Shown one piece after another: positions 14,188-59,800 of a stretch of DNA of 64,000 bases. Below the pieces are notes generated by a model. The model ran no database searches, had not been told where the DNA came from, and saw only the letters and a program-made list of their open reading frames with translations. Made by a program: the position numbers and the translations under genes. This DNA is from Inonotus obliquus. Lineage: Eukaryota; Basidiomycota; Agaricomycetes; Hymenochaetales; Hymenochaetaceae. Location: contig JAJHTX010000006.1 in NCBI GenBank assembly GCA_032164295.1, positions 496,001 to 560,000 of the forward strand. The letters run 5' to 3'. Position 1 is the stretch's first letter, and each line of letters starts with the position of its first letter.

Positions 14188-14663
14188 GTTCTGTTAGAAA
14201 ACGCTCACCCTAAAGGGACTATACAGTAACCACAATAGGACGGTCCGCAGTGTTACGGGTTCGGCGATGCTTTTCTAAGAGTTTCCGGAGCCTACTCGGT
14301 TTTCACAAGCAGGGCAGATTCCCAAGTATACTAAGCGTTGCCTCAGATGCTCTCGTTTACTAATCAAGTTGGGCCTCAACCTCATTGACAGACTAGTAGG
14401 ACAGTATCGACTGCCGTTCGTAAGCTTCCCTAGTCGGTGGGCGACTAATCAATCGTTCCACGCCATAGAGTAAGAGAGGTTAAGCAGATTAGGTGGTCTT
14501 CAGATTAGAAGCTAGATGCCTAAGAGGACTCGATGTACAAGACGATCGAAAGAAAGATAGGGAGCTACGGTCTAAGTCTACAACTATTTATACCTTTTCC
14601 TCATGTTGTGGACGGACCACTTCCTACGCTCCGTAGTTCCTACTCTCGATCTGATTTGTTGTT

Positions 14664-14957
14664 CTAGCTTCCAAACTCGTCTGGTATTCCTATTGTTCTG
14701 CTGCGGATTGACTCATCGACTGCGCCCTGTGCAAGGCGATGACTCAGCGTTGACTCATCTTGACTTGAACTGAATTGAAACCTATGCTCGGGGTCGGCCT
14801 TGTGCTGCGCCCTGTGCATAGAGTGAGTCAGTGAGTGAGTCATTGAATGCGTGTTCGTATGCCATTGGTTTTGCATGGCTGCGCCGTAGTTAGAGTTTGC
14901 TCGTCCGCAGTTGCTCGTGTATTTAAGGAATTCCGTTGGGGTTCCGTTGTATAGCAT
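14664..14957 (-). CDS. CTG-element protein 2 (97 aa), copy A
   Basis: A second frame, overlapping the 3' end of the 258-codon frame by ~35 bp in a different frame. It starts MLYNGTPTEFLK, has a His/Thr/Ser-rich middle (THSMTHSLTHSMHRAQH) and ends DEFGS. It is open in all three copies at the same length, with a handful of substitutions. No known domain. It could be translated by re-initiation, or be part of a spliced product. Confidence 0.55.
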   Translation of the reverse strand: MLYNGTPTEFLKYTSNCGRANSNYGAAMQNQWHTNTHSMTHSLTHSMHRAQHKADPEHRFQFSSSQDESTLSHRLAQGAVDESIRSRTIGIPDEFGS

Positions 14958-15699
14958 CTGGGGCTATGAAGGCTGTGATTTGCTTGTCGCCTCGGGACTC
15001 TCGTTCGGGGCCGTCAAGTGTGATTCGACATCGGATATCATCGTGGGGAAACCAAGGTGGTTTAACGTAGGTGCCTATGGCGATGAGTAGCCGTACACTT
15101 CGTCGAGTATCGTTCGAAGGTATTCTCCAGCCTAGGTATAGGTCTCCTTGTAGTCGAATAGCTTTGCAGTATGCCCATAGTTCCCTGAGTGTGTTTGCAA
15201 CCCATACCACTGTTATCGGTGAGCGGCGGTTCGTAACATAGTCTGCACTGATCTCCACGAATGTGCTTGGGCACTCGAGTGCTAATATATCGTGGATTCC
15301 TACTATTGTCCAGTGCGTCTTTGGTTGCATGCCTATTGCCGTATCCATTGCTATTGTTGACCTCGTGCGATTTCGAATGACCTCCGGGGGATTGTGGTAT
15401 TCTCGATAAGCTGTTGCTCGTTCGCTGGACACATGATATGTCAACATGCTCGTTGCCTCCCGTAGTATTATCTTGTGTAGGTCTTCGATGATCTGTCGCA
15501 CTCTTCTGCATTTATAGCAAGCTGTTGGAGGTTGCTGTACTTGCTGCATCGTTTGCGAAGGTTTAGTGTGATCGTCGGGATTAGCGTTGCTAGCCGATGC
15601 TTCTTGATCGTCAGCTTCGGATTGTATTAGCCGTGCGTGTTCTTCGCTTCTCGCTGTCGATCCTGATCGTCTCCGGCCAGTGAAATTAACCGGTCCCAT
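14923..15699 (-). CDS. CTG-element protein 1 (258 aa), copy A, intact
   Basis: An unbroken frame starts MGPVNFTGRRRSGS about 60 bp inside the element end. The first ~70 residues are polar and low complexity (EADDQEASASNANPDDHTK). A CYKCRRVRQ segment near residue 62 offers one CxxC pair. The remainder (HKIILREATSMLTYH, ILALECPSTFVEIS, LRELWAYCKAIRL) looks globular and alpha/beta. No family is recognised. The equivalent frame is open in copy C and broken by one stop in copy B, so the reading frame is preserved across insertions. Confidence 0.7.
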   Translation of the reverse strand: MGPVNFTGRRRSGSTARSEEHARLIQSEADDQEASASNANPDDHTKPSQTMQQVQQPPTACYKCRRVRQIIEDLHKIILREATSMLTYHVSSERATAYREYHNPPEVIRNRTRSTIAMDTAIGMQPKTHWTIVGIHDILALECPSTFVEISADYVTNRRSPITVVWVANTLRELWAYCKAIRLQGDLYLGWRIPSNDTRRSVRLLIAIGTYVKPPWFPHDDIRCRITLDGPERESRGDKQITAFIAPDAIQRNPNGIP

Positions 15700-15904
15700 C
15701 CGGGGTAGTTTCGATCGACGTTCCTAATCGAATCAAAATTTCAGCACAATCCTTTCAGGTTCAAATCACGACGTCGGAAAATTTAAAGAATGGATGACGA
15801 AAAGGGTAAAAAGGGATCGGCAAAATGCTTAGTGAAAAGTACGTCGTAACAGTCACAGACATTGACGAAATTCATCCTTATTAGCTCTTTACTCTCAAGC
15901 ACAT

Positions 15905-27340: not shown

Positions 27341-30027
27341 TCACGGCGGTTTGAAAACATCCACCAAAAGGTGAATGGAAGGGAAGAGGTTGTTAAACCG
27401 GTGAAACCAGTCTAAGTTCCAGGCGTCCGGGAAGGCCCTGCGGCAAATCGGACATTCCAACAGGCGATGTCGTATCGTTTCCAGTTCCCCGCACATCCTG
27501 CATGCTAGGTCTATCGAGGGGTTTATTCTCCCCATGACTTCTCCTACCGCGGCGACCCCTGCTAGTAATCGTAAGGCGGTAGTCTCACCGATCCTGTTTA
27601 GATTAGAGTGAGTGATGTGGACCGGCGTTGGTTTGGCTTGGCTGAGTAGGAAACGTTAAGAAGGAGTTTCCATCGTGTGATGTGCTGCGGTGTTCGTCTG
27701 TTGCAGTATAGCTTTCCACGCTTCAGGGATAGCTGCGCGTGCAGACTCCCTGACGCCTTCGACCGTCGCTGCCGGGAAGAGAGAGAACTCGTCGTCTTCC
27801 AGAGGTGGTTTTCTCGGGAAGCACCTGGTGGGTAAACATAGAAAATAAAAGAAAATGTTCGTCTGAGCAAGCGCCCCTACGATTTGTTCGATCAAAGCGG
27901 TATGAAGGCGCGATGGTGAAATCAAGGCTGATCGAAGCTCTAAAGGGAAATAAATGGGGACTCTGGTGGGAACTACATATTCTACGAAGGGGTGAACCAA
28001 ATGATTATAGATAAACTTTGAAATCGAAACTAAAGCTAAAGAAAACACGTTGGTGTCTGCCGTGGCCGCGTAGGCTACCTGTTTTTCCAGGGCCGCCGAC
28101 CCGTTGTCCGTCCAAACTTCCACCCTCCGCGGTATCTCACTCGTGTACAGCCATACGCATGGGGTGCGACTATTCGTGCTGCGCTCTAGGACACGCGCCG
28201 TCATTCGGTGCCACACCGTCGTGTACTCCGGTCTTGGGAAAGGTGAGCATGGGACTATAGGTCGCCTTGAGATGCCGCGCATGTATTCCTCTCTGATCGC
28301 GGGCGATCCCATTCTATTCGCATCAATCATCGCGTTTTGCGTTTCTGTAATGTAAGAAAACGAAAGCGCCAGGGGTGGGATCCCTGCCAGTACTTCCATA
28401 ACTTCTAACTTTGTGTAGGGTAGCCAGCCACCTATGTCCTTCATCGCGCGTAGGTGTATTCCATTGAATTGTGTTATCAGCTCCGGTTGGGAGACCATCC
28501 ATATAGGCGCTCCCCATGACATGACCGGTAGAAGGATATTCTGATAGTAGCGCCTAAGCGCTTTAAGTCGAAGACCTCGTGACGCGCCCGACATCCATCG
28601 TAGAGTGTTCCATGTGTGTCTAGCCGCGTTTACGCGTCCCATAACGTGCGGCGAGAAACTCCTGTCGTGCCGCATCTCTATTCCCAACCATTTAATTGTA
28701 GGTTGGGACCATTCCACCTGAACTCCGTCCACACTCATTGGTACACCGACGATGCCAAAAGCACCCGCGCTTCCCCCCCTATACATCCTTCTACCGGTTT
28801 GGGTAGTTCCCTTAATTGACGACTTGTCGATGTGTAGACCAATGTCTTTGAATACATTGTTGACCTCGTTGATTCCCTCTTGAGTGGAACAGCGAAGTTC
28901 GTAAGCGCTTCGTCCTTCAGTGAGTAGAAGGCCATCGTCCATGTAAAACCATAGGTTCCTGTTGTTAGCTCGTTGTAGTGCAACGTTGGCCGCTATGTTT
29001 GCGAGCACCGGGGACATGGGGGAACCTTGGGGCACTCCAATGTATGGCTTTGTATACCATTGCGATCTTTGTCCGTTAAAAGAGAAAGCGATGGTACGTT
29101 CGCGCATGAAGGCCATGACCGTCCTTGTAATGGATTGCGGGACTCCTAGAGCGTCCATACCCTGTTGGAGGAACTCCGGCTTGACTGCATCGAAGAAACC
29201 TTGGATATCGAATCCAACCATCGTGTACATTGCTTCTCTGTCGCGAATGTTTGAGAGGAGGGAGTGCCAGGCCGTCATAACTGACAAGCCTCTTCTGCCG
29301 CTGTATTGTCTTCGGTCGAACCTCTGGTGGTGATGCAGAAGGGACTGGATACGCGCTGTCAACATACGTTCGAGCAGTTTTGCTAGCACTTCTTCCACGC
29401 ATATTGGGCGGTAAGCTCTTGGTGTATCTGACGGATAGGGCTTGGGCTTCTTGACCATTGCTACGACGGAGCGCTTGAATTCTGCAGGGTAAATTTCCCA
29501 CCGGGTGATGGCATTGAAAAGCCGAGTAAACGCTCCTACATGAGCAATCACCAGGGGCCGTATTGCATGATACGTCATCCCTGACGGTCCCGGTGCGCTG
29601 TTGGGTGGGATTCCCTTCAGGCTGATCAGGACCTCGCTTTCCGTGAACGGTCTCCAGGTGTTGCGGGACTGCAGGGCCACGTCCCGAGCGCCTTGTTGTC
29701 CCTGTTCTGGGAAGTAGTGTTGCTTGAACACTTCCGCAATCTTGACGTGTCTAACTGCCCGAAAGGGAACTGTCAGCGTAGGGATCATTACTTGTCGGCG
29801 GGGAAGGCCATGTTTATGGAACTTCCACGGGATACTGTTACCGACTTCATCGAAGCGTGTCTTGTACCACTGCATCCTCTTATTGCGGATCCAGTACAGG
29901 AGGTCTGGCACCGCCTCTTCCACCCGCCGATCGCACTCCTCGTCCCACCACCGCTCCTTCCTTTGAGCCGTCGTGTTGTATGCCAGGGCGTTTGTTGCTA
30001 ACCCTGCGCAGGCCCACAGACGGGATA
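27341..30027 (-). pseudogene. LINE ORF2, reverse transcriptase part (3' part)
   Basis: A long frame continues ORF2 from the CTG-element B junction (30027, TSD ATA) to the stop at 27341. It opens with RLWACAGLATNALAYN and the KERWWDEECD block typical of LINE ORF2 linkers. RT blocks follow: SAPGPSGMTYHAIRP, AYRPICVEEVLAKLLERML, GFDIQGFFDAV (first catalytic Asp), GVPQGSPMSPVLAN and FYMDDGLLL with the Asp pair. Downstream is VEVWTDNGSAA, reminiscent of an RNase H start but not followed by a full domain. Near the end ACRMCGELETIRHRLLECPIC gives the LINE C-terminal zinc motif. One in-frame TAA at 27658-27656 separates that zinc segment from the rest. Confidence 0.88.
30025..30027. repeat. 3-bp TSD (ATA) beside CTG-element B
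   Basis: ATA borders the CTGAAAG end of copy B. Its partner, read as TAT on the plus strand, is at 35552-35554 beside copy C, not at the other end of B. The pair becomes adjacent only if the interval between B and C is re-inverted. Confidence 0.8.
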
Positions 30028-30086
30028 CTGAAAGGATTGTGCTGAAATTTTGATTCGATTAGGAACGTCGATCGAAACTACCCCGG

Positions 30087-30863
30087 ATGGGACCGGTTAA
30101 TTTCACTAGCCGGAGACGATCAGGATCGACAGCGAGAAGCGGAGAACACGCACGGCTAATACAATCTGAAGCCGACAATCAAGAAGCATCGGCTAGCAAC
30201 GCTAATCCCGACGATCACACTAAACCTTCGCAAACGATGCAGCAAGTACAGCAACCCCCAACGGCTTGCTATAAATGCAGAAGAGTGCGACAGATCATCG
30301 AAGACCTACACAAGATAATACTACGGGAGGCAACGGGCATATTAACGTATCATGTGTCCAGCGAACGAGCAACAGCTTATCGAGAATACCACAATCCCCC
30401 AGAGGTCGTTCGAAATCGCACGAGGTCAACAATAGCAATGGATACGGCAATAGGCATGCAACCAAAGACGCACTGGACAATAGTAGGAATCCACGACATA
30501 TTAGCACTCGAGTGCCCAAGCACATTCGTGGAGATCAGTGCAGACTATGTTACGAACCGCCGATCACCGATAACAGCGGCATGGGTTGCAAACACACTCA
30601 GGGAACTATGGGCATACTGCAAAGCTATTCGACTACAAGGAGACCTATACCTAGGCTGGAGAATACCTTCGAATGATACTCGACGAAGTGTACGGCTACT
30701 CATCGCCATAGGCACCTACGTTAAACCACCTTGGTTTTCCCACGATGATATCTGATGTCGAATCACACTTGACGGCCCCGAACGAGAGTCCCGAGGCGAC
30801 AAGCAAATCACAGCCTTCATAGCCCCAGATGCTATACAACGGAACCCCGACGGAATTCCTTAA
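30087..30863 (+). pseudogene. CTG-element protein 1, copy B, one premature stop
   Basis: The 258-codon frame of copies A and C is here interrupted after 222 codons by TGA at 30753-30755, where the other copies have CGA. Downstream codons stay in frame and similar. A single C-to-T change explains the break. Confidence 0.75.
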
Positions 30864-31122
30864 ATGCACGAGCAACTGCGGACGAGCGAACTTTAACTAC
30901 AGCGCAGCCATGCAAAACCAATGGCATACGAACACGCATTCAATGACTCACTCACTGACTCACTCTATGCACAGAGCACAGCACAAGGCCGACCCCGAGC
31001 ATAGGTTTCAATTCAGTTCAAGTCAAGATGAGTCAACGCCGAGTCATCGCCTTGCACAGGGCGCAGTCGATGAGTCAATCCGCAGCAGAACAATAGGAAT
31101 ACCGCACGAGTTTGGAAGCTAG
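30829..31122 (+). CDS. CTG-element protein 2 (97 aa), copy B
   Basis: The same His/Thr/Ser-rich 97-codon frame as in copy A, open throughout, starting MLYNGTPTEFLK and ending HEFGS. Differences from the other copies are scattered substitutions only. Confidence 0.5.
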   Translation: MLYNGTPTEFLKCTSNCGRANFNYSAAMQNQWHTNTHSMTHSLTHSMHRAQHKADPEHRFQFSSSQDESTPSHRLAQGAVDESIRSRTIGIPHEFGS

Positions 31123-31598
31123 AATAACGAATCAGATCGAGAGTAGGAACTACGGAGCGTAGGAAGTGGTCCGTCCACAACATGAGGAAAAGGTATAAAT
31201 AGTTGTAGACTTAGACCGTAGCTCCCTATCTTTCTTTCGATCGTCTTGTACATCGAGTCCTCTTAGGCATCTAGCTTCTAATCTGAAGACCACCTAATCT
31301 GCTTAACCTCTCTTACTCTACGGCGTGGAACGATTGATTAGTCGTCCACCGACTAGGGAAGCTTACGAACGGCAGTGGACACTGTCCTACTAGTCTGTCA
31401 ACGAGGTTGAGGCCCGACTTGATTAGCTAAACGAAAACGTCTGAGGCAACGCTTAGTATACTTGGGAATCTGCCCTGCTTGTGAAAACCGAGTAGGCTCC
31501 GGAAACTCTTAGAAAAGCATCGCCGAACCCGTAACACTGAGGAGACCGTCCTATTGTGGTTACTGTATAGTCCCTTTAGGGCGAGCGTTTTCTAACAG

Positions 31599-33386
31599 GA
31601 GCTCCACACCCCGGAATTAGTTGCTGAATCAGTCGGATCCCAACTGGGCTCGGAAGCACACAACTTCGAACAGATGGGCCACACACTAGGCAAAGTCACA
31701 GCGATGCTTTTCTCAGCTATTTCCCAGTCACGTGAAGATGGCCCTTTCGCGACGGGCGACAGCATGGACCGTTTCATGTGGGGTTTCTCAGGGGGATACA
31801 TGAAGGAGTCTCTCTACCCAGGAGGTTTCGAGGATGGTCTACGCCTCCTGGCCAGCAATTGTGCGATCACACCGGCCGTATACCCGACGTACGGAAAGGA
31901 TGTGGACCCGCAGCTTTACGCGATTCTGGACCGCCTTAAGGTGATGAGTGAGGAACAGGTGTTGGCCGGCCGCCAGGCACGAGAGGCGGCGGATGAGACC
32001 AGGAAGCAACTGGCCGTCTTAGGGGAAAGGATGAAGAAGGTAGAACAGGGACGTTTGCCGGTTCCCGTCCACCAGGCGGCCACAGGGGGTCAAGGACTCT
32101 AGGCATCTAGGTGGGCACAACCTCCCGCTGTGCAGGGTGCTGCCCCGGGTGGAGGACAGCATAAAGCACCCCAGGCCGTAGGCCCTAGCCGACGTGCAGG
32201 TGTGCAGGTAGTGGCCCCTGTCGCGCAATCGGCGCATAACACTACCCCCAAAGGTGCAAGGCAGGACACAGGCCCAGGCAAGGCCCCTGCCCATGAAGTC
32301 ATTGACGTCGACGCGTTAAACTCGTCTAACGAACGCAGCGGCATACCGGAGCAATACATCCGCTACGTCCCAGCGGCGGAGCCACAAGCTTTCGTTCAGG
32401 TTACGCGTCGTAATGCAGGTTCACACACGTACGCGCAGGTGGCTGGAAACCAACCCAGGGCCCCTAAACCTATTCAGAAGAAGCGGCCGATGGTTAATGA
32501 AATCCGCACGAAGAAGGCAAAAGTAGCAACCACTCTGCCTTTTACCATACAACCCCGCCCTAACCTATCGCGTGAGGAGATGTACGTCCTCGCTCGAGCG
32601 GCACGTCCTGTTCCCCCAAAGGGCGGATTGTTTGTCATCTGCAAGGCTTACTGGGCCCTTCGTGGAGATTTCCTGGTAGACATCGATGCGCGTGCAGACG
32701 CAGCGGAAATGGGCAATGCGTGGGCGGCTAACATTCAGGAGAAACTCCGCGTGACATTCGATGCAATGACTTCGGTAGAATTCACCCCGAGGGCGGAATC
32801 TTTCCAGTTTATCGTACCTGGCTTCCCCATTCTTAACCCGGTCACAAAGAAAATGCACACCCCCGAGGAAGTCGCCATCGAACTACGCCTGGCTAATGCT
32901 GTCTTCTTGGAATTCCCTTTCACGGAGGCCCCACGCTTCATGGGCAAACCAGATTTCTTACAAGGGATGCTCAACAAAAACCGCGCCGCTACATGCTCGA
33001 TCATGGTGTCAGTGTCTCACCCCCTTAAGTCGAAGGAGGCAATATTTTACAAAACCGGCACCGTAAAGAAAGCAATCCGCTTCTACGGGCACTACCAGTA
33101 CGCTGTCGAGCAGAGAGCTCGCTCAGGGCCGATTCAGTGCCGAAAGTGCTACCGCTACAGACACAGCGACCAGGACTGCGTCGAGAACTTCCGATGCGCC
33201 AGATGCGCCGAACCGCACCAGACGGAAATGTGCAAGAAGAAATGTGACACGTGCACCTCGGCTAACGAATGTACGCACGTGATTCGTTGCGTCAACTGTA
33301 AAGGGCCGCACCGGGCCAACACATCCAACTGTCCCCAACGTCCGCGGTTTGAGAACCCGCGCTCGTCGTCCCCTCCTGCATACTAA
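31599..33386 (+). pseudogene. LINE ORF1 (gag-like), main part, inverted block
   Basis: The reading frame resumes directly at the GAG duplication beside copy B (LHTPELVAESVGSQLGSE) and runs to TAA at 33384-33386. It has a coiled or helical segment (QAREAADETRKQLAVLGERM), a low-complexity linker, a central domain and three CCHC-type zinc knuckles. These begin CRKCYRYRHSDQDC and continue RCARCAEPHQTEMC and RCVNCKGPHRANTSNC. One in-frame TAG at 32100-32102 interrupts it. Its N-terminus is found on the minus strand at 41068-40768 and 39037-38849. Confidence 0.87.
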
Positions 33387-34218
33387 ATGCGGGGCCAAAT
33401 ACGAATAGTATCTTATAACGCTGGTCGTTCCACTTTGGTGCTATATATGGCTCAAAACCGGTTGCAAAAAAACTATTTATCGGCATGGGATCTCGACGTC
33501 TGGTGTATCCAGGAGATACCTCACCACCCGGTCGGGACAGCTCACACGAGAGAACAACAGGAAATGCGGGAACTGGGTGCCCCCCTTTTCAGTGGACACC
33601 GTATGGTTTTAGCTCAAGGCGCTGCGCCATGGGTCGGAATAGCCATCCCCAACGGCATTAATTTTTCGATCATCAATGACGTCCCGGCACAGACAATGGT
33701 ACATGTCGAACTCCATTTGAGTAGAGGCAACATCCATTTTTTCTCCGTATACTGTCCTCACACTTCCCACAACGAGGAATGGCCGAAAATCCGTGATAGA
33801 TTCAACGCGGGCTTCCCGGATACTTCGATAATCGGCGGCGACTTTAACGCCGCCGGCCCGTGGTCCTCCGGCAACATCTTCCATAGAAGCGAAGGGGGAC
33901 AGGAACGCACTGAATTTTTCAGTGATTGGATGGAAGATCATCCAGAAATTACGTACGCAGATGATCCAGACAAAGCAACGTGCTATGGCGCTAATCAGTC
34001 TCGGGGTACTCACCCGGATGCAATGCTCTACACTCCCCTCACAGTTCCGGACTTAAGACAGTCCTGGCGAGCTCACCATCATATAAGAACGATACGTCAC
34101 CATCACATTATGACAGCGTCGTTGACAAACTGGACCAACCCAGCCAGCTTAGAACGAATGGGTATTCCCAATGATAAAGCCAATGCGTGGGCAGCTGAGC
34201 TCGAATACGTGGTCCCGG
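33387..34218 (+). pseudogene. LINE ORF2, endonuclease part (5' part), inverted block
   Basis: The ATG follows the ORF1 stop with no gap (TAAATG), suggesting termination-reinitiation. The protein is an exonuclease/endonuclease/phosphatase (APE) domain: RIVSYNAGRS, CIQEIPHH, FFSVYCPHT, SIIGGDFNAAGP, TCYGANQSRGTHPDAML and IRTIRHHHIMT. These hold the expected Asn, Glu, Asp/Asn and His catalytic positions. The frame is broken at 34215-34218 by element E3 and continues at 35501, still in frame when E3 and one CCGG are removed. Confidence 0.87.
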
Positions 34219-35496
34219 TGAAGAGAACTACGTGCAGCTGAGCTCGGTATCAAGCCCGGTATCCCATTCTATGCTTACCCCATGCTATGGTACGGTCCTA
34301 TCTACACCTTCCAGTATCCTCCAGCACACCTAGAGAAACCGTTGGTCCCATTTCTCAAGATACCGAACGCTGAGAGTACCGGTACCGAGCGCCAAGAAAC
34401 CCGGTACCGAGAATACCGAGAGTGCCGAGTGCCGAGAAACCCGGTACCGAGACAATTTGACAATTCGACGTGCTCTCATGACATGGATCGGACGTCTCCC
34501 TCTCTGGTATTTATTCCTGATGGTTGGAGAATGCATGCTGGTTCTTTGGAGAAGCTCAGGGTCAGTATCCATTAAGGTTTTCAGGTCCGGTACCACCAGG
34601 AACGTGTCGGTATCAATTGGCAGGGGCTCAAATCTCTTGTCCTGAGGACTTTTCATCCAGGGGTACTATATACTACGTTTTCATTGGTATCTTGTCCTAC
34701 CTAACCCTTTCTTGTTGTCCCCCTGATGGCTCTACTGTATTCATTCTTCTTATGACATTTTTCTTTGTTTTGATCTTCCTTTTTTACTTTCTCCTTTTGG
34801 ACTTATGAGCTAACTACGGTACAGTAGTATAAATATCTCCTCCTGTACGTAGTAGCTCTCCAGGTAATCTTAGGAGCTAGCCTCTAACGTGAGGGCTCGG
34901 GTTTCCTCACCCCCTTCTCAGTTCCATCTCAGTCTCATCTCAAGCTTCGTCCCAGTCCCATCCCAGTTTCGTCTCAAGTGAACCTTCAGAGTTAGCCTCC
35001 CGTGTGAGGGCTCAGGTTTCCTTCCCAGTCCAGTCAACACTCTCAGCCACCAGCCTCCCCCAGACTGTTTCTTGCTATACCACCCCGTGCTAGCAGTTTC
35101 CTTGCAGTACCGACCTGTACCGATGTTTTTCCCACGGTACCGACATTTTGTTATTCTTCATATTTTGCACATCCACCTTTTGTTTCTGTACTGAGCTTTT
35201 GTTTTACAACGTTTCTGCACATACCGATCCCGTTTGTTCAAGTACCGACCTGTACCGACATTTTTCCCACGGTACCGACCCTCTCGATTCCAGACAAGAA
35301 CACATTCCCCCCGACATCTAGCTGATCCAACACCCCTTTCTATTATTCCTTTGGCTCTCTTTACATCCCCCTTCTACAGACAACAAGTACCGTGAGCGTA
35401 CTGGATAAGTACTGCCTCATTTGGCCCTCCCCGTATTCTTATACCATACATCCCTCGACCGGTACCTCCGGTACCGGCCGCGATCTCGCACATTTA
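34219..35496 (+). mobile_element. LTR-like CGGTA-rich element E3 (1278 bp)
   Basis: Inserted in LINE ORF2 with a 4-bp duplication CCGG (34215-34218 and 35497-35500). It begins TGAAGAG and ends CTCGCACATTTA. It is rich in CGGTACCG/GGTATC motifs and has a TATA-like TAGTATAAATA near 34826. A part near 34677-34770 aligns with E1/E2 (TTTTCATTGG, CCCCCTGAT, TTCATTC). With E2 ends the consensus becomes TG...CA, suggesting a solo LTR. No protein-coding frame was seen. Confidence 0.75.
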
Positions 35497-35554
35497 CCGG
35501 GTGGTTTCTGGGAGAGCAACCTGGCAAACGAGGAGGAGGTCCAAGCGTGGGTAT
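35497..35554 (+). pseudogene. LINE ORF2 linker fragment
   Basis: A 58-bp piece between E3 and CTG copy C encodes GGFWESNLANEEEVQAWV. It joins the endonuclease part (…ELEYVVP) to the reverse-transcriptase part (SRLWACAG…) in frame once the inserted elements and their duplications are removed. Confidence 0.8.
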
Positions 35555-36028
35555 CTGTTAGAAAACGCTCGCCCTAAAGGGACTATACAGTAACCACAAT
35601 AGGACGGTCTGCAGTGTTACGGGTTCGGCGATGCTTTTCTAAGAGTTTCCGGAGCCTACTCGGTTTTCACAAGCAGGGCAGATTCCCAAGTATACTAAGC
35701 GTTGCCTCAGACGCTCTCGTTTGGCTAATCAAGTCGGGCCTCAACCTTGTTGACAGACTAGTAGGACAGTGTCGACTGCCGTTCGTAAGCTTCCCTAGTC
35801 GGTGGGCGACTAATCAATCGTTCCACGCCGTAGGGTAAGAGAGGTTAAGCAGATTAGGTGGTCTTCAGATTAGAAGCTAGATGCCTAAGAGGACTCGATG
35901 TACAAGACGATCGAAAGAAAGATAGGGAGCTACGGTCTAAGTCTACAACTATTTATACCTTTTCCTCATGTTGTGGACGGACCACTTCCTACGCTCCGTA
36001 GTTCCTACTCTCGATCTGATTCGTTATT

Positions 36029-36322
36029 CTAGCTTCCAAACTCGTGCGGTATTCCTATTGTTCTGCTGCGGATTGACTCATCGACTGCGCCCTGTGCAAG
36101 GCGATGACTCGGCGTTGACTCATCTTGACTTGAACTGAATTTAAACCTATGCTCGGGGTCGGCCTTGTGCTGCGCCCTGTGCATAGAGTGAGTCAGTGAG
36201 TGAGTCATTGAATGCGTGTTCGTATGCCATTGGTTTTGCATGGCTGCGCCGTAGTTAAAGTTCGCTCGTCCGCAGTTGCTCGTGCATTTAAGGAATTCCG
36301 TCGGGGTTCCGTTGTATAGCAT
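36029..36322 (-). CDS. CTG-element protein 2 (97 aa), copy C
   Basis: The same overlapping 97-codon frame as in copies A and B, starting MLYNGTPTEFLK and ending HEFGS. It is open throughout. Confidence 0.5.
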   Translation of the reverse strand: MLYNGTPTEFLKCTSNCGRANFNYGAAMQNQWHTNTHSMTHSLTHSMHRAQHKADPEHRFKFSSSQDESTPSHRLAQGAVDESIRSRTIGIPHEFGS

Positions 36323-37064
36323 CTGGGGCTATGAAGGCTGTGATTTGCTTGTCGCCTCGGGACTCTTGTTCGGGGCCGTCAAGTGTGATTCGACATCGGA
36401 TATCATCGTGGGGAAACCAAGGTGGTTTAACGTATGTGCCTATGGCGATGAGTAGCCGTACACTTCGTCGAGTATCGTTCGAAGGTATTCTCCAGCCTAG
36501 GTATAGGTCTCCTTGTAGTCGAATAGCTTTGCAGTATGCCCATAGTTCCCTGAGTGTGTTTGCAACCCATGCCGCTGTTATCGGTGATCGGCGGTTCGTA
36601 ACATAGTCTGCACTGATCTCCACGAATGTGCTTGGGCACTCGAGTGCTAATATATCGTGGATTCCTACTATTGTCCAGTGCGTCTTTGGTTGCATGCCTA
36701 TTGCCGTATCCATTGCTATTGTTGACCTCGTGCGATTTCGAACGACCTCTGGGGGATTGTGGTATTCTCGATAAGCTGTTGCTCGTTCGCTGGACACATG
36801 ATATGTCAACATGCCCGTTGCCTCCCGTAGTATTATCTTGTGTAGGTCTTCGATGATCTGTCGCACTCTTCTGCATTTATAGCAAGCCGTTGGAGGTTGC
36901 TGTACTTGCTGCATCGTTTGCGAAGGTTTAGTGTGATCGTCGGGATTAGCGTTGCTAGCCGATGCTTCTTGATCGTCGGCTTCGGATTGTATTAGATTCG
37001 CGTGTTCTTCGCTTCTCGCTGTCGATCCTGATCGTTTCCGGCCAGTGAAATTAACCGGTCCCAT
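36288..37064 (-). CDS. CTG-element protein 1 (258 aa), copy C, intact
   Basis: Unbroken and the same length as in copy A, with few substitutions (for example GRKRSGS for GRRRSGS). The E1 insertion lies about 20 bp upstream of its ATG, between it and the element end, so any promoter there is displaced. Confidence 0.68.
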   Translation of the reverse strand: MGPVNFTGRKRSGSTARSEEHANLIQSEADDQEASASNANPDDHTKPSQTMQQVQQPPTACYKCRRVRQIIEDLHKIILREATGMLTYHVSSERATAYREYHNPPEVVRNRTRSTIAMDTAIGMQPKTHWTIVGIHDILALECPSTFVEISADYVTNRRSPITAAWVANTLRELWAYCKAIRLQGDLYLGWRIPSNDTRRSVRLLIAIGTYVKPPWFPHDDIRCRITLDGPEQESRGDKQITAFIAPDAIQRNPDGIP

Positions 37065-37086
37065 CCGGGGTAGTTTCGATCGGCGT

Positions 37087-38807
37087 TGAATGTGCGAGAA
37101 CGCGGCCGGTATTAGAAATACCGGATGAGGGGGGTACGATTTAGATGCGTTGGGAGGGCCGGTACGTGGCGGTACTAAGTCGTACAGTCACAGACAAGTC
37201 GTCAAGAGAGAATAGTAGGGCCTGGCTGGATTGATGAGTACAGGAGACTATAGGTGACCGCTCAAGAGGAGAGGTATCAGGAGACGATCAATACCGAGAC
37301 GAATCCGTCGATACCGAGTCGTCTGGTGTCCGGTATTACGGTAGAGAGAACGAAGCAGTAGAGGAAGCGAGCTGAGGAGGTGTTTTTGATAGGACTGGTC
37401 GTGAGACGAGAGACGAGGGCGACGAAGACGAGAACGACGACTACCGGTATCGATACCGGTGACTACGAGACGAGACGAACGAACGGGGACTTGAACGGGA
37501 TGAGCAAAACCCGGTCCTTCACTCTGGAAGTTCCTCTCAGATTAGCTGGTTTGCTACAGTAGAACATGCAGGCTATAAATACCATAATACCGTAGCCATT
37601 CAAGATACCAAATGGGGGGTTTTTACAAGTCGAATCGTACCGTAATCCGGTACAAGAAATGGAACATAAGGTCGAATTGAATGTAAAATTACAATCAGGG
37701 GAAACATAAGATGATGAATGAATAAGAAGTTTTATCAGGGGGTAGCTAAGAATAGGGTGGGACGAGACAAGAACCCAATGAAAACTCACGACGAGTGATA
37801 CCGAGGTAGGGCGGCGATACCGACGTCGACCAGCGCTAAATTAAGGACGTGTCTCAAGCTACCGCATGGGCGCTCCTGGCGATGTCCCTGTCGTAGGAGA
37901 AGCACGTCATCCTGATTTACCTTTGTTCCGGTATCATGATCCGTGCGGCGTCAGTCTGGGCGTCTACCGATCGATCGGACGGCGTGCTCCGATGTTGACG
38001 TGTCGGTACAACCCAACCTTGGCAATGGGGTACTCTACCGTTCGGTACCAATCAGTACCCTGGGATCGTCCCTGAGCATCACTCTAGCCCCTCGATATCG
38101 ACCGGTACGCGTCGCCTGACTCGACTGGGCATTGCTTGGCTTCCCCTCCGAGTCGGATCGATGGCCTCCTCCGAGATCGAAGCAGCGTACGGTGGACTTG
38201 ATTCATTTCCCAACCTTCCTCTCGACGTAGATCTCCGATGGCGTGGTCTTGACCTAGCACACGTAACGAACTCCGGTACCGGGGCGGACCATCGGTATCA
38301 ACACCGGTATCGTCGGTATCGATGCATGGCGGTTCGGAAGGGCATACCGTCGGGCTTGGAACCTCGACCATGATCCAACTCTTCGCAGCAACGTATGGCA
38401 GACCGAGTGCAGCTTTGTGAGCCTTTTTCTATGGTATGGGCTGTCGAGGGCGTAGTATCGACTAGGTGTGGAGTATTAAGCGTCGGTATCAGGACGGGTG
38501 GACGGTACGGTATCGGTATCATCGGTATCGAAGTCTGGTGGTTCGGTACTATGATGGAAGACGGGCGTAGGGATTGGTGATTCGGTATTGGCGCAGAAGT
38601 GGACCAGTTCTCAATCGCTCTCAGCCTTGTCGAATCGCAGAAGCCTCGTACTTTGTTGGAACCGCAGGCGTAGATAGGACGGCAGAAGTACCGTGGTCCG
38701 AAGAGAAGTAAGAAGCGGTAGAATCGCAGAAGTATTGTTAATTGGAAGAAGCGGTAGAATCGCAGAATTAAGCCCATATCGATCGTAGCCTCCGGTATTA
38801 CTCTTTA
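37087..38807 (-). mobile_element. LTR-like CGGTA-rich element E1 (1721 bp)
   Basis: Inserted inside CTG copy C with a 4-bp duplication GCGT (37083-37086 and 38808-38811). Terminal sequences on the plus strand are TGAATGTGCGAGAACG and ATTACTCTTTA. More than 25 CGGTA/TACCG motifs are scattered along it. It is the inverted near-copy of E2. In the E2 orientation it carries a TATTTATAG box about 1.2 kb from the 5' end. Open frames inside are not supported as genes. Confidence 0.82.
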
Positions 38808-38848
38808 GCGTTCCTAATCGAATCAAAATTTCAGCACAATCCTTTCAG

Positions 38849-39037
38849 CTCCGCTTCTACCCGGTCGAAAACTTCACCCACGTAAGTATATGTACGTGAG
38901 TAAGCGGCCTGTGCGTCAAAAACACTTTCCACCTCCATTTGCTCATCCCACGTTTTCTTCCCAGGCTCAGGGGCCTCCCTTGCCAGCGCCTCTCCCGACG
39001 CCTTACGTTTCCCGAGTCGTTTGTCCAGCGCGTCCGC
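38849..39037 (-). pseudogene. LINE ORF1 fragment between E1/C and E2
   Basis: An open minus frame encodes ADALDKRLGKRKASGEALA and later EVFDRVEAE. It continues in frame from the N-terminal piece (…INTAVA) and into the main ORF1 (LHTPEL…) when E2, copy C and their duplications are removed. Confidence 0.82.
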
Positions 39038-40767
39038 TAAAGAGTAATACCGGAGGCTACGATCGATATGGGCTTAATTCTGCGATTCTACCGCTTCTTC
39101 CAATTAACAATACTTCTGCGATTCTACCGCTTCTTACTTCTCTTCGGACCACGGTACTTCTGCCATCCTATCTACGCCTGCGGTTCCAACAAAGTACGAG
39201 GCTTCTGCGATTCGACAAGGCTAAGAACGATTGAGAACTGGTCCACTTCTGCACCAATACCGAATCACCAATCCCTACGCCCGTCTTCCATCACAGTACC
39301 GAACCACCAGACTTCGATACCGATGATACCGATACTGTACCGTCCACCCATCCTAATACCGACGATTAATAGTCCACGTCTAGTCGATACTACGCCCTCG
39401 ACAGCCCATACCAGAGGAAAAGGCTCACAAAGCTGCAATCGGTCTGCCATACGTTGCTGCGAAGAGTTGGATCATGATCGAAGCTCCAAGTCCGACGGTA
39501 TGCCCTTCCGAACCGCCAAGCATCGATACCGACGATACCGGTGTTGATACCGATGGTCCGCTCCGGTACCGGAGTTCGTAACGTGTGCTAGGTCGAGACC
39601 ACGCCCTCAGAGATCTACGTCGAGAGGAAGGTTGGGAAATGAATCAAGTCCGTCGTACGCTGCTTCGATCTCGGAGGAGGCCATCGATCCGACTCGGAGG
39701 GGAAGCCAAGCAATGCCCAGTCGAGTCAGGCGACGCGTACCGGTCGATATCGAGGGGCTAGAGCGATCTCGTTGATGCTCAGGGATGATCCCAGGGTACT
39801 GATTGGTACCGAGCGGTAGAGTACTCCACTGCCAAGGTTGGGTTGTACCGACACGTCAACATCGGAGCACGCCGTCCGATCGATCGGTAGACGCCCAGAC
39901 TGACGCCGCACGGATCATGATACCGGAACAAAGGTAAATCAGGATGACGTGCTTCTCCTACGACAGGGACATCGCCAGGAGCGCCCATGCGGTAGCTTGA
40001 GACACGTCCTTATTTTAGCGCTGGTCGACGTCGGTATCGCCACCCTACCTCGGTATCACTCGTCGTGAGTTTTCATTGGGTTCTTGTCTCGTCCCACCCT
40101 ATTCTTAGCTACCCCCTGATAAAACTTCTTATTCATTCATCATCTTATGTTTCCCCTGATTATAATTTTACATTCAATTCGACTTTATGTTCCATTTCTT
40201 GTACCGGATTACGGTACGATTCGACTTGTAAAAACCCCCCATTTGGTATCTTGAATGGCTACGGTATTATGGTATTTATAGCCTGCATGTTCTACTGTAG
40301 CAAACCAGCTAATCTGAGAGGAACTTCCAGAGTGAAGGTCCGGGTTTTGCTCATCTCGTTCAAGTCCCCGTTCGTTCGTCTCGTCTTGTAGTCACCGGTA
40401 TCGATACCGGTAGTCATCGTTCTCGTCTTCGTCGCCCTCGTCTCTCGTCTCACGACCAGTCCCATCAGAAGCACCTCCTCAGCTCGCCTTCTCTACTGCT
40501 TCGTTCTCTCTACCATGATACCGGACACCAGACGACTCGGTATCGACGGATTCGTCTCGGTATTGATCGTCTCCTGATACCTCTCTTCTTGAGCAGTCAC
40601 CTATAGCCTCCTGTACTCATCAATCCAGCCAGGCCCTACTATTCTCTCTCGACGACTTGTCTGTGACTGTACGACTTAGTACCGCCACGTACCGGCCCTC
40701 CCAACGCATCTAAATCATACCCCCCTCGTCCGGTACTTCTGATACCGGCCGCGTTCTCGCACATTCA
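39038..40767 (+). mobile_element. LTR-like CGGTA-rich element E2 (1730 bp)
   Basis: Inserted in LINE ORF1 with a 4-bp duplication CCGC (39034-39037 and 40768-40771). It begins TAAAGAGTAATACCGG and ends TTCTCGCACATTCA. It is nearly identical to E1 in opposite orientation, the two forming a long inverted repeat with a 230-bp spacer. A TATTTATAG box lies near 40273. The different duplications show E1 and E2 are separate insertions, not one inverted duplication. Confidence 0.82.
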
Positions 40768-41068
40768 CCGCGACGGCCGTGTTGATGCTCTGTCCGGTCG
40801 GCACGTCCCAGCGCAAGGAATCTGTACCGTCCCAGCCTGCGGAGGCTGTCCTTGCGTTGTGTTCTTCCTCCGTTTCGAATGGAGGTTCAGACCTGGCGAG
40901 TTGACTGTCAGGAACAGACGACGCTGCCCCCACGGGCTGAGAAACACGCCCGATGGCGGGTTTGGGTGGTGCAGGAGGTGCTGCCTTGTTAGACAGTACC
41001 GCCTGGATGCGTCTCACCCCTCCGCGAGTAACTGATCTCAAACTACGAGTCTCTCCATTATCACTCAT
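40768..41068 (-). pseudogene. LINE ORF1 N-terminal fragment
   Basis: It starts MSDNGETRSLRSVTRGGV at 41068 and runs to the E2 junction (SINTAVA). The stretch is Ala/Pro/Ser-rich, as expected for the disordered N-terminus of a LINE ORF1 protein. The ATG lies 18 bases inside the LINE 5' end. Confidence 0.8.
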
Positions 41069-41086
41069 GGTGGTAAAAGAGAAAGG

Positions 41087-41101
41087 TTTAAGGGCAATTG
41101 A
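41087..41101. repeat. LINE target-site duplication, 5' side
   Basis: TTTAAGGGCAATTGA, identical to 27151-27165. It begins directly beyond the LINE 5' end and lies 7 bases before the first ATG of the Smr-domain gene. Confidence 0.92.
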
Positions 41102-41108
41102 ATCCCTC

Positions 41109-44100
41109 ATGTCCCGTGACCTGCTGTCTCTGTTAGCACGTGATGCAACATGCCTGACTCGGATGCCGCTTCAAGTCAAGTTCTCCACTCACAGCGGTAT
41201 GTCTACCGCTCAGGTATTCTCCCTCGGTATCGGCGTCGCTCTCAGGCTGCTCATCAACTCATTCTGTGCCCATAATGACAAGCTAGCCGGTGCACTCTCG
41301 GGTATCTGGGACGGGGTCGTCGCGTACGCGGCATGGCGCACAGACAGATTGTTGGAACCCACAGTTCTCGTGGAAATCATTGCCGCTGTATGCTTTGATG
41401 CTCTTTATCATGGATCAACCGCCCGCCTTGTTTCGCTTGGTCTTGGTACCACGCTGGGAGTACTTGTGTCGGACACAGCAGGTTTACATACTCTTTGGGT
41501 TGATTTGGGCGAAAACGTACAAGTCAAGCTTAGGGATCTTCCTGTGGACATAAAGGACGACCTCGACTCTCCCGACGTCCTAAGCGAGTTCTCAGAGGAC
41601 GTGACCGTAATCTATGAACAAAAAATGAGTGTAACAAGCCCACGAACTCGAAAGATGACTACAGCGGAATGGATCGCAGCTCAACGTAAAGCACGGGCAG
41701 AGCGTTCGTCAAAATCGACTGCTTCTCGGACCAGACATTCATCAGCTTCTGTGAATATCAGTATTACCGATCTTGACAAGAGTCTCACATCATCGGGTTA
41801 CGATACTCAAACGCGTGCAACGACAAGGTCGCTGAGGTCGAATCCGTCGGTTACGCAGACTCAGAGTAGTCGGGCACGGAGGGATAGGGAACTGCTAGCG
41901 ACGATGACGCCGCTTCCGCCTCTTTCTGCACCTTCGGTGGCAAAGAATTCGGAGATTAATATTGATGTACTATCACCATCTATTTCGACACGAATATCCT
42001 CGCCTACTTTCAGGCCGGAGATCGTAGAAGAAATATCCGTTCGGGAGTCGAATGAAGGGGCGGCTATAGATATCTCCAAAGATATATCAAGGGTTTCGAG
42101 TCCTCCGAAGTCTACTGCACCAAAGTCTAATCGTTCTGTGCGGAAGGAAACAATTTATGTCGAAGAGACAATCTATCCGCCAGCCGATCGACCTCTATCC
42201 TCTTCGTCATCCAAAACTGAACGTGCGGTGCCATTGGAACAGCAGACCACCCCTCGCACTTTCTCCGAACGGTCCGCCCACACAACCACGAAGAATACAC
42301 ACGTTCAAACGCCAAAGTCCAAACACACACGTACAGCGTCAGCGACAGATCGCAGTCCTTTCATGTCATTCATCCCACCACGCCCGGTTGATACCAGAGA
42401 ACCCACCATCATCTCCGCTTCTCATGAATCTCGGAAAACTCCTGGTCGTTCACCGAAGGTTCTTTCTGAGGATCCAAGTCTAGATCGAGTCGCAGCAGAG
42501 ATTCTTTCTACCTGGAACGAGGATCTTCGCGCGAGGTTGGCGCAATCCCGTGCGTCTACGCATCGGTCGGAACACTTTGATGAAGAAATTCTTCAACCAC
42601 CAACCTCTGGGAGGCAAAGTCAGCATACGACAATTCGATCGAGAAGTTCGGTACGCCTTGATGACCGACAATATGACGAGACTGCCCAAGGATATGTTAG
42701 AAGTGGTGGTAATCACAGTCATAGCGAACAGCAGCCTCCTGCACCGTCCACTCATGCTCCAGAAGTTGTCATTGATTATTCGGGCGATACAACGCGGATA
42801 TACATACCTCCTCCAGCTGAGTCTGGGATAAACGTGCGAATTGTACCGAGGGCAGAAGAAAGTGAGGCCCAGGACAACACACACGATCCTAATGACGATG
42901 TTCACGTTGATCACGACTACCTATCCGAGAACTACCACTACAATTATCCAGCACTTCAGTCTGTCAATGAAAGTGCCGCTCGCAGTCAAGAAGAGATGTT
43001 ATTCATTCCTCAATACACTGGATCTTTCCCTGAGCTCGAGACTGTCCCTCCGGTAGACGAGCAGGGAATTATGGCTAGTATTGGTGAAGTCGATGATGAT
43101 GGACATCGCTCACATCACTCTCAACGCTCTCATGCGTCCCGTGCGTCTCGTACTTCCCTCGCCGAACAAAGTAGCGACCGTCATCCACCGTCGACTTTCG
43201 AACTCAACAAAGCCTGGAGGGACTCGGCAGATCCACCATCGTCTTCTTCTGATACTGATTACCGACCCCTCATTGAACCGGACGACCCGCTTCCTGTTTA
43301 TATTTCCGAGAATGTTGGTGTGGATGAAAGTGTTAGTATGCGTGCTGGTGCCATTGGTGAAGCCGGTGTAGGACTGGGAGGTCCATCCGAGTACTTACAC
43401 GTCGCTAGGTCTCGAGCAGGATCAAATTCAGGTAGTTCGCGCCACCCCCCAGTACCTACGTCTCGGAGATCACGCTCAGCTGCAGCTGATTCGCGGTACA
43501 GCCAGAGCTATAGTCATCATAATCAAAGTCGCAGCCATAGCCGAAGACGAAACGAAGGCTCCAACACACTCGATTTGAACACGCGAGGTGCTATAGGTGC
43601 AGCGGACGAAATGACAAAGACTCCATCTGTAGAATGGCTCGGCCCTTCAATTTATCGATCTCAATCCGTTCGTGATCGGTCTCGTAGACGGAGTGTTGGT
43701 GAGGCGAGTGGCACTCACAGTCACAATAATGAGGCGAAATATGACCGCGATCGGGACCAGAAGCAGGATCGACGACGCTCTGGTTCTATAGTCCCAATTG
43801 CGCGTTCACACGACCCTCGTCAATCTTCAAGTTTCGTCACATCCCCAACAGTCGACGAGAGTATCTTATCTCACCGCTCTCAACGTTCCCAACGCTCTCG
43901 CACTCCCAATTCCGCCTCTACCTCCGCTAAACCCACCATCGTCAATCCTCCAAGTACACCAAACTTACGTTCTCGCGCTACAGATTTGGAAAACAAAGTT
44001 GCGGAAATAGAAGCGCGGTGTAGAGCACTTCGAGAACGTATTGGTGAGGCTAAGAGAGAGGGAAATAATAAGCTTGCTTTTGAACTTGGATGTGAACTTG

Positions 44101-55652: not shown

Positions 55653-57104
55653 ATGTCAGGTCGACTTCTCCTCACAGTCCTCATAGGCGTCGCAGCCATC
55701 CTCGGCGGTCTATACCAGTTCAGAATAAAACCCAAACTCATAGTCCTTGGTGAAGGTCGTCCTGTGCGTCCTGTTGGGAATACGCGATGTAAGGCCTATC
55801 CCGACGCACAGGCTTGTGAAAGTGCGTCCTACGACTACTGTTTGCTACCAGAATTACTAACGTGTGTTCAGAAATCGTACTCCATCCCGAGACTGGACTG
55901 CTTTACATGGCATGCTCCTCCCAAGAAAGCCGCCCACACTGGCTGCCTGCGACCAACCGTCTAAATGTGACGGGCAAGTCCTCCGCAGACTATGTCGCCT
56001 TCTTCGACCCTTCCACCTCCAAAATCACTCGTCTCTCCAAGGAACATTTCAAGTTCGCACGCGGGCTCTCACTGCACGGAATGGACATCCTCCCTTCCCG
56101 TGAACACCCCTCGGAATTGTTGGTCTATTTGGTGAACAACAGGGAACCGTTTGAAAATAAGGAGAGCGCGCAGGAGGTTGGAGCGGACTCGGTCGTGGAG
56201 ATCTTCACAACGACGCCGGGGAAGGATGAGATGCGGTATGTCGCGACGTTTAAAGACCCTGTGGTTGCCACTCCCAACGATATCGCTGCGACGGGCGACG
56301 AGATGGATTTCTATTTCACGAATGATCACGGATTCTCCAAAACAGGATTTGTACGTTCATTCATTCTCGTCCTGCCCATTCGATGACAAACTAACAGATG
56401 GAAAATATGTCGTTCTGGTCTGAACTTTCCCTCACAGGCCCGAAAGTATAACGTGGCCACGTTTCTTGACCTCGGCTGGTCGAATGTCGGGTATTGCCAT
56501 GCATACAAGGGCTGCAAAGTTGCAGCAGATAACCTCGTGGGTGCCAACGGCATTGTGCGCGGAAACGATGGGAAGTACTACGTCGCGAGCTCTACGTCAG
56601 GGAGAATCTACGTCCTTGAACGACAGACAGACGATTCCCTGGTATTGACGGACATTATTCCCGTCGGTGCGTTTGTCATTCCTTCCTCTCATTGAGCGCT
56701 CGTTTATTGACACGGGTCTGATCATGCTGTGCGCAGACCGACCTGTAGACAACCTGTCCATCGACCAAACTGGAGCTTTGTGGGGCGCAGGTCTTGTCCA
56801 CACCATTCACCTCGTCAAAACTCACTTCGAAACTCCTTCCATCAATACACCTTCCTCCGCCCTACGCATCACTCTCAACGAGGGTGAAGGTAGCTATTTC
56901 GGCGAGAAATACAAAGTAGAGCGGGTCTTCGAGGACGATGGTGAGATTGCTTCTGGCTCCACTTCTGTTGCGTATGACGCGAAGCGGAAGAAATTGTACT
57001 TGCATGGTACGTAGCTGTTGCTGACCTCAATTTCCTTTCCTTGTCTGAAAGTTTTCTCAGGAATCGCTGCTCCGCACTTAACAGTCTGCGACATTGAGGT
57101 CTGA
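55653..57104 (+). CDS. Paraoxonase/arylesterase-like calcium-dependent phosphotriesterase
   Basis: A six-bladed propeller of the serum paraoxonase (PON) family, which hydrolyses lactones and esters with calcium. Five exons give 396 aa: 55653-55821, 55872-56350, 56438-56666, 56737-57006 and 57061-57104. An N-terminal hydrophobic anchor (LLLTVLIGVAAILGGLYQF) suggests membrane attachment or secretion. Typical segments are IVLHPETGLLYMACSS, LSLHGMDI (HG of the PON pattern), TPNDIAATG with FTNDHGF (the metal-site ND pair), GANGIV and PVDNLSIDQTGALW (DN pair). The last exon encodes only IAAPHLTVCDIEV. The 3' half of this gene recurs as decayed copies at 59636 and 61846. Its natural substrate is unknown. 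Confidence 0.87.
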
Positions 57105-59635: not shown

Positions 59636-59800
59636 TGAGCGCCCGTTTCCTGACTCTGGTCTGATTACGCTACGTGCGGATTTCCCTGTTGAGATCCTGT
59701 CCACTGACCAAACTGGAGCTTTATGGGCGCAGGTGTTGTCCCTATTCACCTCGTCAAAACCCACTTTGAAACTCCGTCCATCAATACACCTTCACGATTT
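59636..59800 (+). pseudogene. Decayed 3' fragment of the paraoxonase-like gene, copy 1
   Basis: The sequence parallels 56690-56855 of the intact gene (TTGAGCGCCCGTTT, CTGACCAAACTGGAGCTTTATGG on two lines of alignment, CTCGTCAAAACCCACTT). Small deletions shift the frame (GGGCGCAGG has lost a G), and the match ends before the last exons. No intact frame remains. Confidence 0.8.

What the first reader, a model, noticed from the sequence alone, without database searches (positions are those of the whole stretch)
30025..38851. Inversion caused by recombination between two CTG-element copies, proven by exchanged target-site duplications
Copy B is flanked by ATA (30025-30027) and GAG (31599-31601). 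Copy C is flanked by TAT (35552-35554) and CTC (38849-38851). Neither copy has a matching pair of its own. If 31599-35554 is flipped, B becomes flanked by ATA/ATA and C by CTC/CTC. The same flip places the LINE ORF1 and ORF2 pieces in one strand, order and frame (VEAE to LHTPEL; EEVQAWV to SRLWACAG). Ectopic recombination between opposite-facing copies is the simplest explanation. It shows these elements can reshape the chromosome.
Basis: seen in the sequence. Interest (0 to 1): 0.88.

Follow-up and report, generated by a model that had tools for sequence, protein, structure and literature searches.

The report
LTR pair flipped a retrotransposon's middle
Two copies of the same mobile-element end, lying in opposite directions inside another mobile element of a probably fungal genome, appear to have recombined and flipped the 4,000 bases between them; it is a clean case of a kind of rearrangement that is already known.

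Summary
B and C are solo LTRs (about 1.57 kb, TG...CA) of a 13.9-kb LTR retrotransposon with Ty3/gypsy gene order, not 'CTG elements' with 3-bp duplications. Their target-site duplications (TSDs) are 5 bp. Flipping 31598-35555 gives B GATAC/GATAC and C GCTCC/GCTCC and restores both reading frames of the host LINE. Among the LINE loci fetched, all that match across a site have the unflipped order (9 of 9 at C, 25 of 25 at B); none of those measured across the present joins matches on both sides. Genome-wide, 89 of 108 solo-type copies have identical TSDs, as do 12 of 12 full-length elements that could be paired. Exactly three pairs show reciprocal exchange; each lies on one contig, inverted, 2.0-4.1 kb apart, and B/C is one. 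Shuffled flanks reach three pairs in 8 of 100,000 trials. Ectopic recombination between inverted LTRs is the best explanation, and it recurs here. Chimerism of B and C could not be shown, and no reads or sister strains were available. The event is very probably real, but of a known kind.

The parts
30029..31597 (+). Copy B: solo LTR, 1569 bp, TG...CA, of a 13.9-kb LTR retrotransposon with Ty3/gypsy gene order
   Evidence: element identity
30024..30028 (.). TSD half GATAC, outer flank of B (pairs with 35551-35555 after the flip)
31598..31602 (.). TSD half GGAGC, inner flank of B (pairs with 38848-38852 after the flip)
31598..35555 (.). Inverted segment, 3958 bp: LINE ORF1 body, start of LINE ORF2 (endonuclease) and insert E, now on the strand opposite to the rest of the LINE
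35556..38847 (-). Copy C: solo LTR of the same family, 1567 bp of LTR plus nested insert D and its 4-bp duplication
35551..35555 (.). TSD half GTATC, inner flank of C
38848..38852 (.). TSD half GCTCC, outer flank of C
27524..30028 (-). LINE ORF2 body (reverse transcriptase, PF00078), not inverted; low end approximate
31603..33386 (+). LINE ORF1 body, inside the inverted segment
33387..34218 (+). Start of LINE ORF2, endonuclease domain (PF14529), inside the inverted segment
34219..35496 (-). Insert E, about 1.28 kb, termini similar to those of D, 4-bp duplication CCGG on both sides; inverted along with the segment (strand given relative to D)
   Evidence: termini read by eye
35501..35555 (+). 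Short LINE ORF2 piece (...EEVQAWV) up to the B junction
37087..38807 (+). Insert D inside copy C, 1721 bp, duplication GCGT on both sides (its own direction unknown; taken as +)
38848..39037 (-). LINE ORF1 N-terminal piece that joins 31603 in the unflipped order
39038..40767 (-). Insert D', inverted near-copy of D inside LINE ORF1, duplication CCGC on both sides (D and D' each keep their own duplication)
40768..41119 (-). LINE ORF1 N-terminal region beyond D'; high end approximate
14192..15757 (-). Copy A: un-rearranged solo LTR of the same family with its own TSD GGTTC/GGTTC (internal control)

Best explanation
Two members of one LTR-retrotransposon family inserted in opposite orientation into a single older LINE on the minus strand: one into ORF1 (TSD GCTCC, now copy C), one into ORF2 (TSD GATAC, now copy B). 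Each was at some point reduced to a solo LTR (inferred). A crossover between the two inverted LTRs then flipped the 3958 bp between them (31598-35555). Each LTR kept its outer TSD half and received the other's inner half, and the LINE was cut into three pieces on alternating strands. Shown: LTR identity, TSD size and exchange, inverted orientation, related LINE loci keeping the unflipped order at both sites, frames restored by the flip, and two more reciprocal pairs in the genome. Inferred: that homologous recombination made the exchange, its position inside the LTR, and the order of events relative to inserts D, D' and E.
For: Exchanged 5-bp TSDs. LINE pieces lie in the unflipped order in the related loci held. 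The unflipped joins are crossed colinearly in 9 of 9 loci with a match at the C site and 25 of 25 at the B site, with at least 56% and 33% identity on the weaker side of the join; matches that run across the present joins (25 loci at B, 2 at C) are one-sided extensions wherever both sides could be measured (weaker side 11-30% in 19 loci at B, 22% in 1 locus at C). Both frames are open across the joins with one TSD copy. 89 of 108 solo-type copies have identical TSDs, 12 of 12 full-length elements that could be paired have matching outer TSDs, and exactly 3 pairs are reciprocal, each inverted on one contig and 2.0-4.1 kb apart. Shuffle 8 of 100,000; a differing TSD goes with an inverted neighbour within 10 kb (11 of 24 against 8 of 84, Fisher p = 1.9e-4). 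All 5 close direct-orientation pairs keep their own TSDs. At C12:54653-64845 the flip also puts the gag and pol pieces of a different LTR element on one strand (genes named by eye; integrase match at C12:60605).
Against: Chimerism of B and C, the third classical criterion, was not shown: a suggestive marker pattern did not survive a whole-sequence swap test (rank 110, 38 and 17 of 465 pairs with 1, 3 and 5 neighbours) or a blind linkage test (no informative site pair, score 0; 292 of 528 pairs score at least that). No reads, sister strain or second haplotype was available, and inverted repeats are where assemblies go wrong. Six of 13 close inverted pairs keep their own TSDs, and at least six of the 19 differing copies have no partner.
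Confidence: 0.91

Rival explanations
1. Assembly artefact: the assembler flipped the segment between the two 1.57-kb inverted LTRs, and the chromosome is in fact unflipped.
For: The signature would be the same. [quoted passage not shown]
Against: The contig is 2.98 Mb long in a 36-Mb assembly of 30 contigs. Two more reciprocal pairs exist, while six other close inverted pairs are assembled with their own TSDs. I could not see reads.
Confidence: 0.07
2. Aberrant (alternative or hybrid-element) transposition made the inversion.
For: Such events make inversions flanked by two copies; for DNA transposons, hybrid-element insertion gives a similar outcome with identical copies (PMC2775673, PMC8225341, passages). 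Two exchanged or partly exchanged pairs elsewhere are nearly identical (1 and 6 substitutions).
Against: The element is an LTR retrotransposon, which does not cut and paste (general knowledge; a passage of PMC8225341 says that its route works only for class II elements). B and C differ at 32 of 1567 positions.
Confidence: 0.01
3. The LINE was already internally inverted when it inserted (twin priming), and the LTRs landed at the junctions later.
For: LINEs can carry inversions from their own insertion (recalled).
Against: Breakpoints coincide to the base with LTR ends, both TSDs are exchanged, and a middle piece rather than the 5' end is inverted.
Confidence: 0.005
4. The TSD cross-match is a coincidence among many LTR copies.
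For: A one-sided match of simple flanks does occur (C10 pair, GAGAG, with no match on the other side).
Against: Two TSDs of the family are equal in 6 of 3916 pairs; shuffles reach three reciprocal pairs 8 times in 100,000; the LINE order agrees independently.
Confidence: 0.001

Closest known systems
Galileo transposon and inversion 2z3 of Drosophila buzzatii (PMC2775673; passages seen)
   Same: Two copies in opposite orientation at the breakpoints, exchanged TSDs, a single target copy in the unflipped arrangement, nested insertions inside the copies.
   Different: DNA transposon with 7-bp TSDs; a chromosomal inversion; non-inverted chromosomes were sequenced and chimerism was shown. Here: LTRs, 5-bp TSDs, 4 kb; the unflipped state is inferred from paralogous LINE copies, and chimerism was not shown.
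Chimeric Galileo copies in Drosophila mojavensis (PMC3573991; passages seen)
   Same: Twelve copies flanked by unequal 7-bp sequences, read as products of exchange between copies.
   Different: DNA transposon; in the passages seen the partners were not named.
LTR retrotransposons with unequal flanks in Mycosphaerella fijiensis (PMC3562529; passages seen)
   Same: A fungal genome where different 5' and 3' insertion sequences around LTR elements (125 elements) are taken as ectopic recombination.
   Different: In the passages I saw, the partners of the exchanges were not identified; here three reciprocal pairs are.
Chimeric centromeric retrotransposons with mismatched TSDs in maize centromere 10 (PMC4806543; passages seen)
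   Same: Mismatched TSDs read as recombination between LTR elements.
   Different: Plant centromere; no reciprocal inverted pair in the passages seen; the same paper shows that such signs can be assembly errors.

Membership tests
Inversion by ectopic recombination between two TE copies | Two homologous copies in opposite orientation at the two breakpoints | tested here: met
   98% inverted repeats, 3958 bp between them
Inversion by ectopic recombination between two TE copies | TSDs exchanged between the two copies | tested here: met
   GATAC/GGAGC and GGAGC/GATAC in element orientation
Inversion by ectopic recombination between two TE copies | Unflipped order in related sequence without the copies | tested here: met
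   9 of 9 and 25 of 25 matching LINE loci; these are paralogues in the same genome, not a sister strain, and only part of the LINE copies was fetched (8 of 39 matches, 30 of 46)
Inversion by ectopic recombination between two TE copies | Both copies chimeric with one crossover point | tested here: inconclusive
   Marker pattern fits, controls do not support it
Inversion by ectopic recombination between two TE copies | Non-inverted chromosome present in sister strains | not testable with these tools
   No relatives of this genome are held
LTR of a Ty3/gypsy-type retrotransposon | TG...CA ends and 5-bp TSD | tested here: met
   89 of 108 solo-type copies and 12 of 12 full-length elements that could be paired
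LTR of a Ty3/gypsy-type retrotransposon | Two direct LTRs around a pol frame with reverse transcriptase before integrase | tested here: met
   One element, C4:637888-651824: RVT_1 in L146, integrase PF00665 at C4:646083 in an 1808-aa frame
LTR of a Ty3/gypsy-type retrotransposon | Primer-binding site and polypurine tract | not tested
   Only a G-rich stretch before the 3' LTR was seen
   TSDs are 5 bp and take in the outer C and G; many other copies do not have C and G there

The most novel reading that the evidence does not exclude
Closely spaced inverted solo LTRs of this family act as reversible inversion switches: the segment between them flips back and forth often enough that roughly half of such pairs are found flipped, and repeated exchange homogenises the two LTRs. 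Of the 9 un-nested inverted pairs with at least 1 kb between them, 3 are fully exchanged, 1 (C7) is exchanged on one side with the other TSD displaced by 8 bp, 4 keep their own TSDs and 1 is unresolved. The first C12 pair and the C7 pair are nearly identical (1 and 6 substitutions against a median of 35), but B/C (32) is not, and the second C12 pair was not read in full. If the reading is right, both orientations should coexist in one culture.
Probability: 0.15. Interest if true: 0.55.

Novelty: new member of a known kind. Interest (0 to 1): 0.33.

Why it matters
It is an unusually clean fossil of an LTR-LTR inversion: both TSDs intact, the target a coding sequence whose order is known from related copies, and two more reciprocal cases in the same genome. 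It shows that exchanged TSDs can be read from one assembled genome to count small inversions that would otherwise need a second genome to see, and it gives a rough yield (3 to 4 of 9 close inverted pairs). It does not reveal a new mechanism.

Tried and rejected
Rejected: the 'CTG element' with 3-bp TSDs. Rejected as evidence: the reciprocal mosaic of B and C seen. A swap test ranked it 110, 38 and 17 of 465 pairs with 1, 3 and 5 neighbours, and a blind linkage test gave no informative site pair; LTRs of this family are mosaic in general. Led nowhere: the protein search with the LTR-encoded frame had no match at E 0.001 among 226 candidates; a literature search for flip-flop LTR inversions found no paper with all six terms; passages of PMC10085805, PMC2672092 and PMC6415491 added nothing decisive. 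A first TSD script ignored locus orientation and gave false mismatches; one search replaced it.

Limits of the counts: 163 5' ends were used (100 of the 111 that were listed, all 62, and one added by hand) and all 159 3' ends; only exact LTR ends were sought. 27 and 23 of these stayed unpaired and were left out. 'Solo-type' was decided from the flanking letters. At least three of the 19 'differing' copies look like pairing artefacts or a deleted element (C4:3010181, C12:419398, C7:489063); I left them in the counts. In one search only 19 of the 25, and 1 of the 2, matches that ran across the present joins had enough residues on both sides to be measured. The C10 pair (one TSD shared, other flank unrelated) is treated as doubtful.

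Full report
What is there. The window is C6:496001-560000 of a 36.07-Mb genome in 30 contigs. The best named match of the LINE's ORF2 is a protein of Sanghuangporus weigelae, a basidiomycete, at 40% identity, so the genome is probably fungal; the species is not known to me. Three copies of one repeat lie in the window: A 14192-15757, B 30029-31597 and C 35556-38847. C carries a nested insert D (37087-38807, duplication GCGT on both sides). B and C sit inside a LINE (non-LTR retrotransposon with endonuclease PF14529 and reverse transcriptase PF00078).

The repeat is an LTR. Ends are TG...CA and the TSD is 5 bp. Of 108 solo-type copies with both ends listed, 89 have identical 5-bp flanks, and the 12 full-length elements that the script could pair all have matching outer flanks. 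Start-to-start distance of their two LTRs is 12.3 to 12.5 kb in 11 of the 12 and 10.2 kb in one. In one, C4:637888-651824, the reverse transcriptase precedes the integrase (C4:646083, an 1808-aa frame), the Ty3/gypsy order. A's empty site is visible in a related stretch on C7, with a single GGTTC (by eye).

The exchange. B has GATAC on its outer side and GGAGC inside; C, in window orientation, has GTATC inside and GCTCC outside. Reversing 31598-35555 pairs GATAC with GATAC and GCTCC with GCTCC. In element orientation B is GATAC/GGAGC and C is GGAGC/GATAC.

Independent test with the LINE. Pieces of the window's LINE were compared with the loci then held; these are part of the LINE copies in the genome (8 of 39 matches and 30 of 46 became loci). 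The pieces 38848-39037 (minus) and 31598 onward (plus) are contiguous and colinear in all 9 loci that match there; the pieces ending at 35555 (plus) and starting at 30028 (minus) are colinear in all 25 that match there. Splitting each match at the join gives at least 56% identity on the weaker side at the C site (9 loci) and at least 33% at the B site (25 loci). Across the present joins, 25 loci at B and 2 at C gave matches that run over the join; in the 19 and 1 that could be split, the weaker side reaches 11-30% and 22%, which is extension of a one-sided match. With one TSD copy removed, both unflipped joins are in frame.

How common it is. Genome-wide (paired), 19 of 108 solo-type copies have unequal flanks. 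Among these, exactly three pairs are reciprocal: B/C (3958 bp between), C12:56154-57719 with C12:61779-63344 (4059 bp), and C12:1844289-1845850 with C12:1847875-1849440 (2024 bp). Each is a pair of inverted neighbours on one contig; no reciprocal pair joins distant sites or different contigs. Shuffling the right flanks among the 19 gives three or more such pairs in 8 of 100,000 trials, and unequal flanks are commoner in copies with an inverted neighbour within 10 kb (11 of 24 against 8 of 84, p = 1.9e-4). The five close direct-orientation pairs listed all keep their own TSDs. A fourth pair, C7:569259/572597, shares AAACT across the two copies exactly; the other TSD, CACGA, lies 8 bp away from the LTR end on one copy. 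A fifth, C10:777883/779687, shares GAGAG only, with no match on the other side, and may be coincidence. In the first C12 pair the flip also puts gag and pol of a different LTR element on one strand, with a gag frame across the join (genes named by eye; integrase match at C12:60605).

Results against. If a crossover made the inversion, both LTRs should be chimeric with one switch point. The first look fitted this, with a switch between alignment columns 755 and 1316, but LTRs of this family are mosaic in general and two controls gave no support. Of 13 close inverted pairs, six keep their own TSDs, two are one-sided, two involve a copy in an unresolved nested cluster, and three are exchanged. 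At least six mismatched copies have no partner (for example C1:68262 and C6:401194). Reads and sister strains were out of reach, so an assembly flip is not excluded; a maize study corrected such errors (PMC4806543, passages).

Comparison with what is known. The Galileo inversion 2z3 in Drosophila was argued from the same signs: opposite orientation, exchanged TSDs, chimeric copies (PMC2775673, passages, one of them from the abstract). In the fungus Mycosphaerella fijiensis 125 LTR elements with unequal flanks were read as ectopic recombination (PMC3562529, passages). A maize paper states that recombination between inverted elements leaves usually non-identical TSDs and makes no new one, unlike alternative transposition (PMC8225341, passages). 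The present case meets the first two signs and not, so far, the third. None of the listings and passages that I saw (searches; open-licence papers only) describes reciprocal LTR pairs as in this genome, but I opened only eight papers and those by passages.

Verdict. The finding is confirmed, its mechanism is very likely right, and it is a well-documented new instance of a known process. The recurrence within one genome is the most interesting part.

Noticed in passing
window 36288-37064 (minus), 30087-30755 (plus); L034:1559-2335: The LTR itself carries an open frame of 258 aa, full length in 24 of 33 copies examined (in two of the other nine the start was not found by the probe), with fewer amino-acid changes than expected (61 of 114 variants against 69% expected, p = 3e-4, variants treated as independent). 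No Pfam match and no homologue at E 0.001. An LTR-encoded protein under apparent constraint deserves its own look.
   Followed up: partly
L034:363-1127 (C4, between pol and the 3' LTR): A further 254-aa frame with a hydrophobic N-terminus (by eye) lies downstream of pol in the 13.9-kb element; no Pfam match.
   Followed up: no
G000 C12:464933-490516, C12:1091617-1124416, C5:1812268-1824506, C1:3135897-3158583, C8:1515238-1521354: LINE ORF1 matches recur on one strand at steps of mostly about 6.1 to 7.4 kb (two of 9 and 12 kb), and in L005 the 3' part of one LINE lies just upstream of the next: head-to-tail LINE arrays.
   Followed up: no
G000 C6:80576-105215: A nested cluster of LTRs whose flanks GGTGT and GGTAT occur on unexpected copies; it looks like a more complex exchange that involves the 3' LTR of a longer element. 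Not resolved.
   Followed up: partly
G000 C12:56154-63344 and C7:569259-574180: The LTRs of these two pairs differ by only 1 and 6 substitutions (the C7 pair also by a 40-bp gap), against a median of 35 between copies, as if homogenised by gene conversion.
   Followed up: partly
window 37087-38807 and 39038-40767: Inserts D and D' are inverted copies of another family, 96-97% alike, with 4-bp duplications, 230 bp apart, each with its own duplication intact: an inverted pair that did not exchange.
   Followed up: partly
window 56690-62318: Diverged copies of a roughly 2.5-kb unit in tandem, two to three copies by the repeat families found.
   Followed up: no
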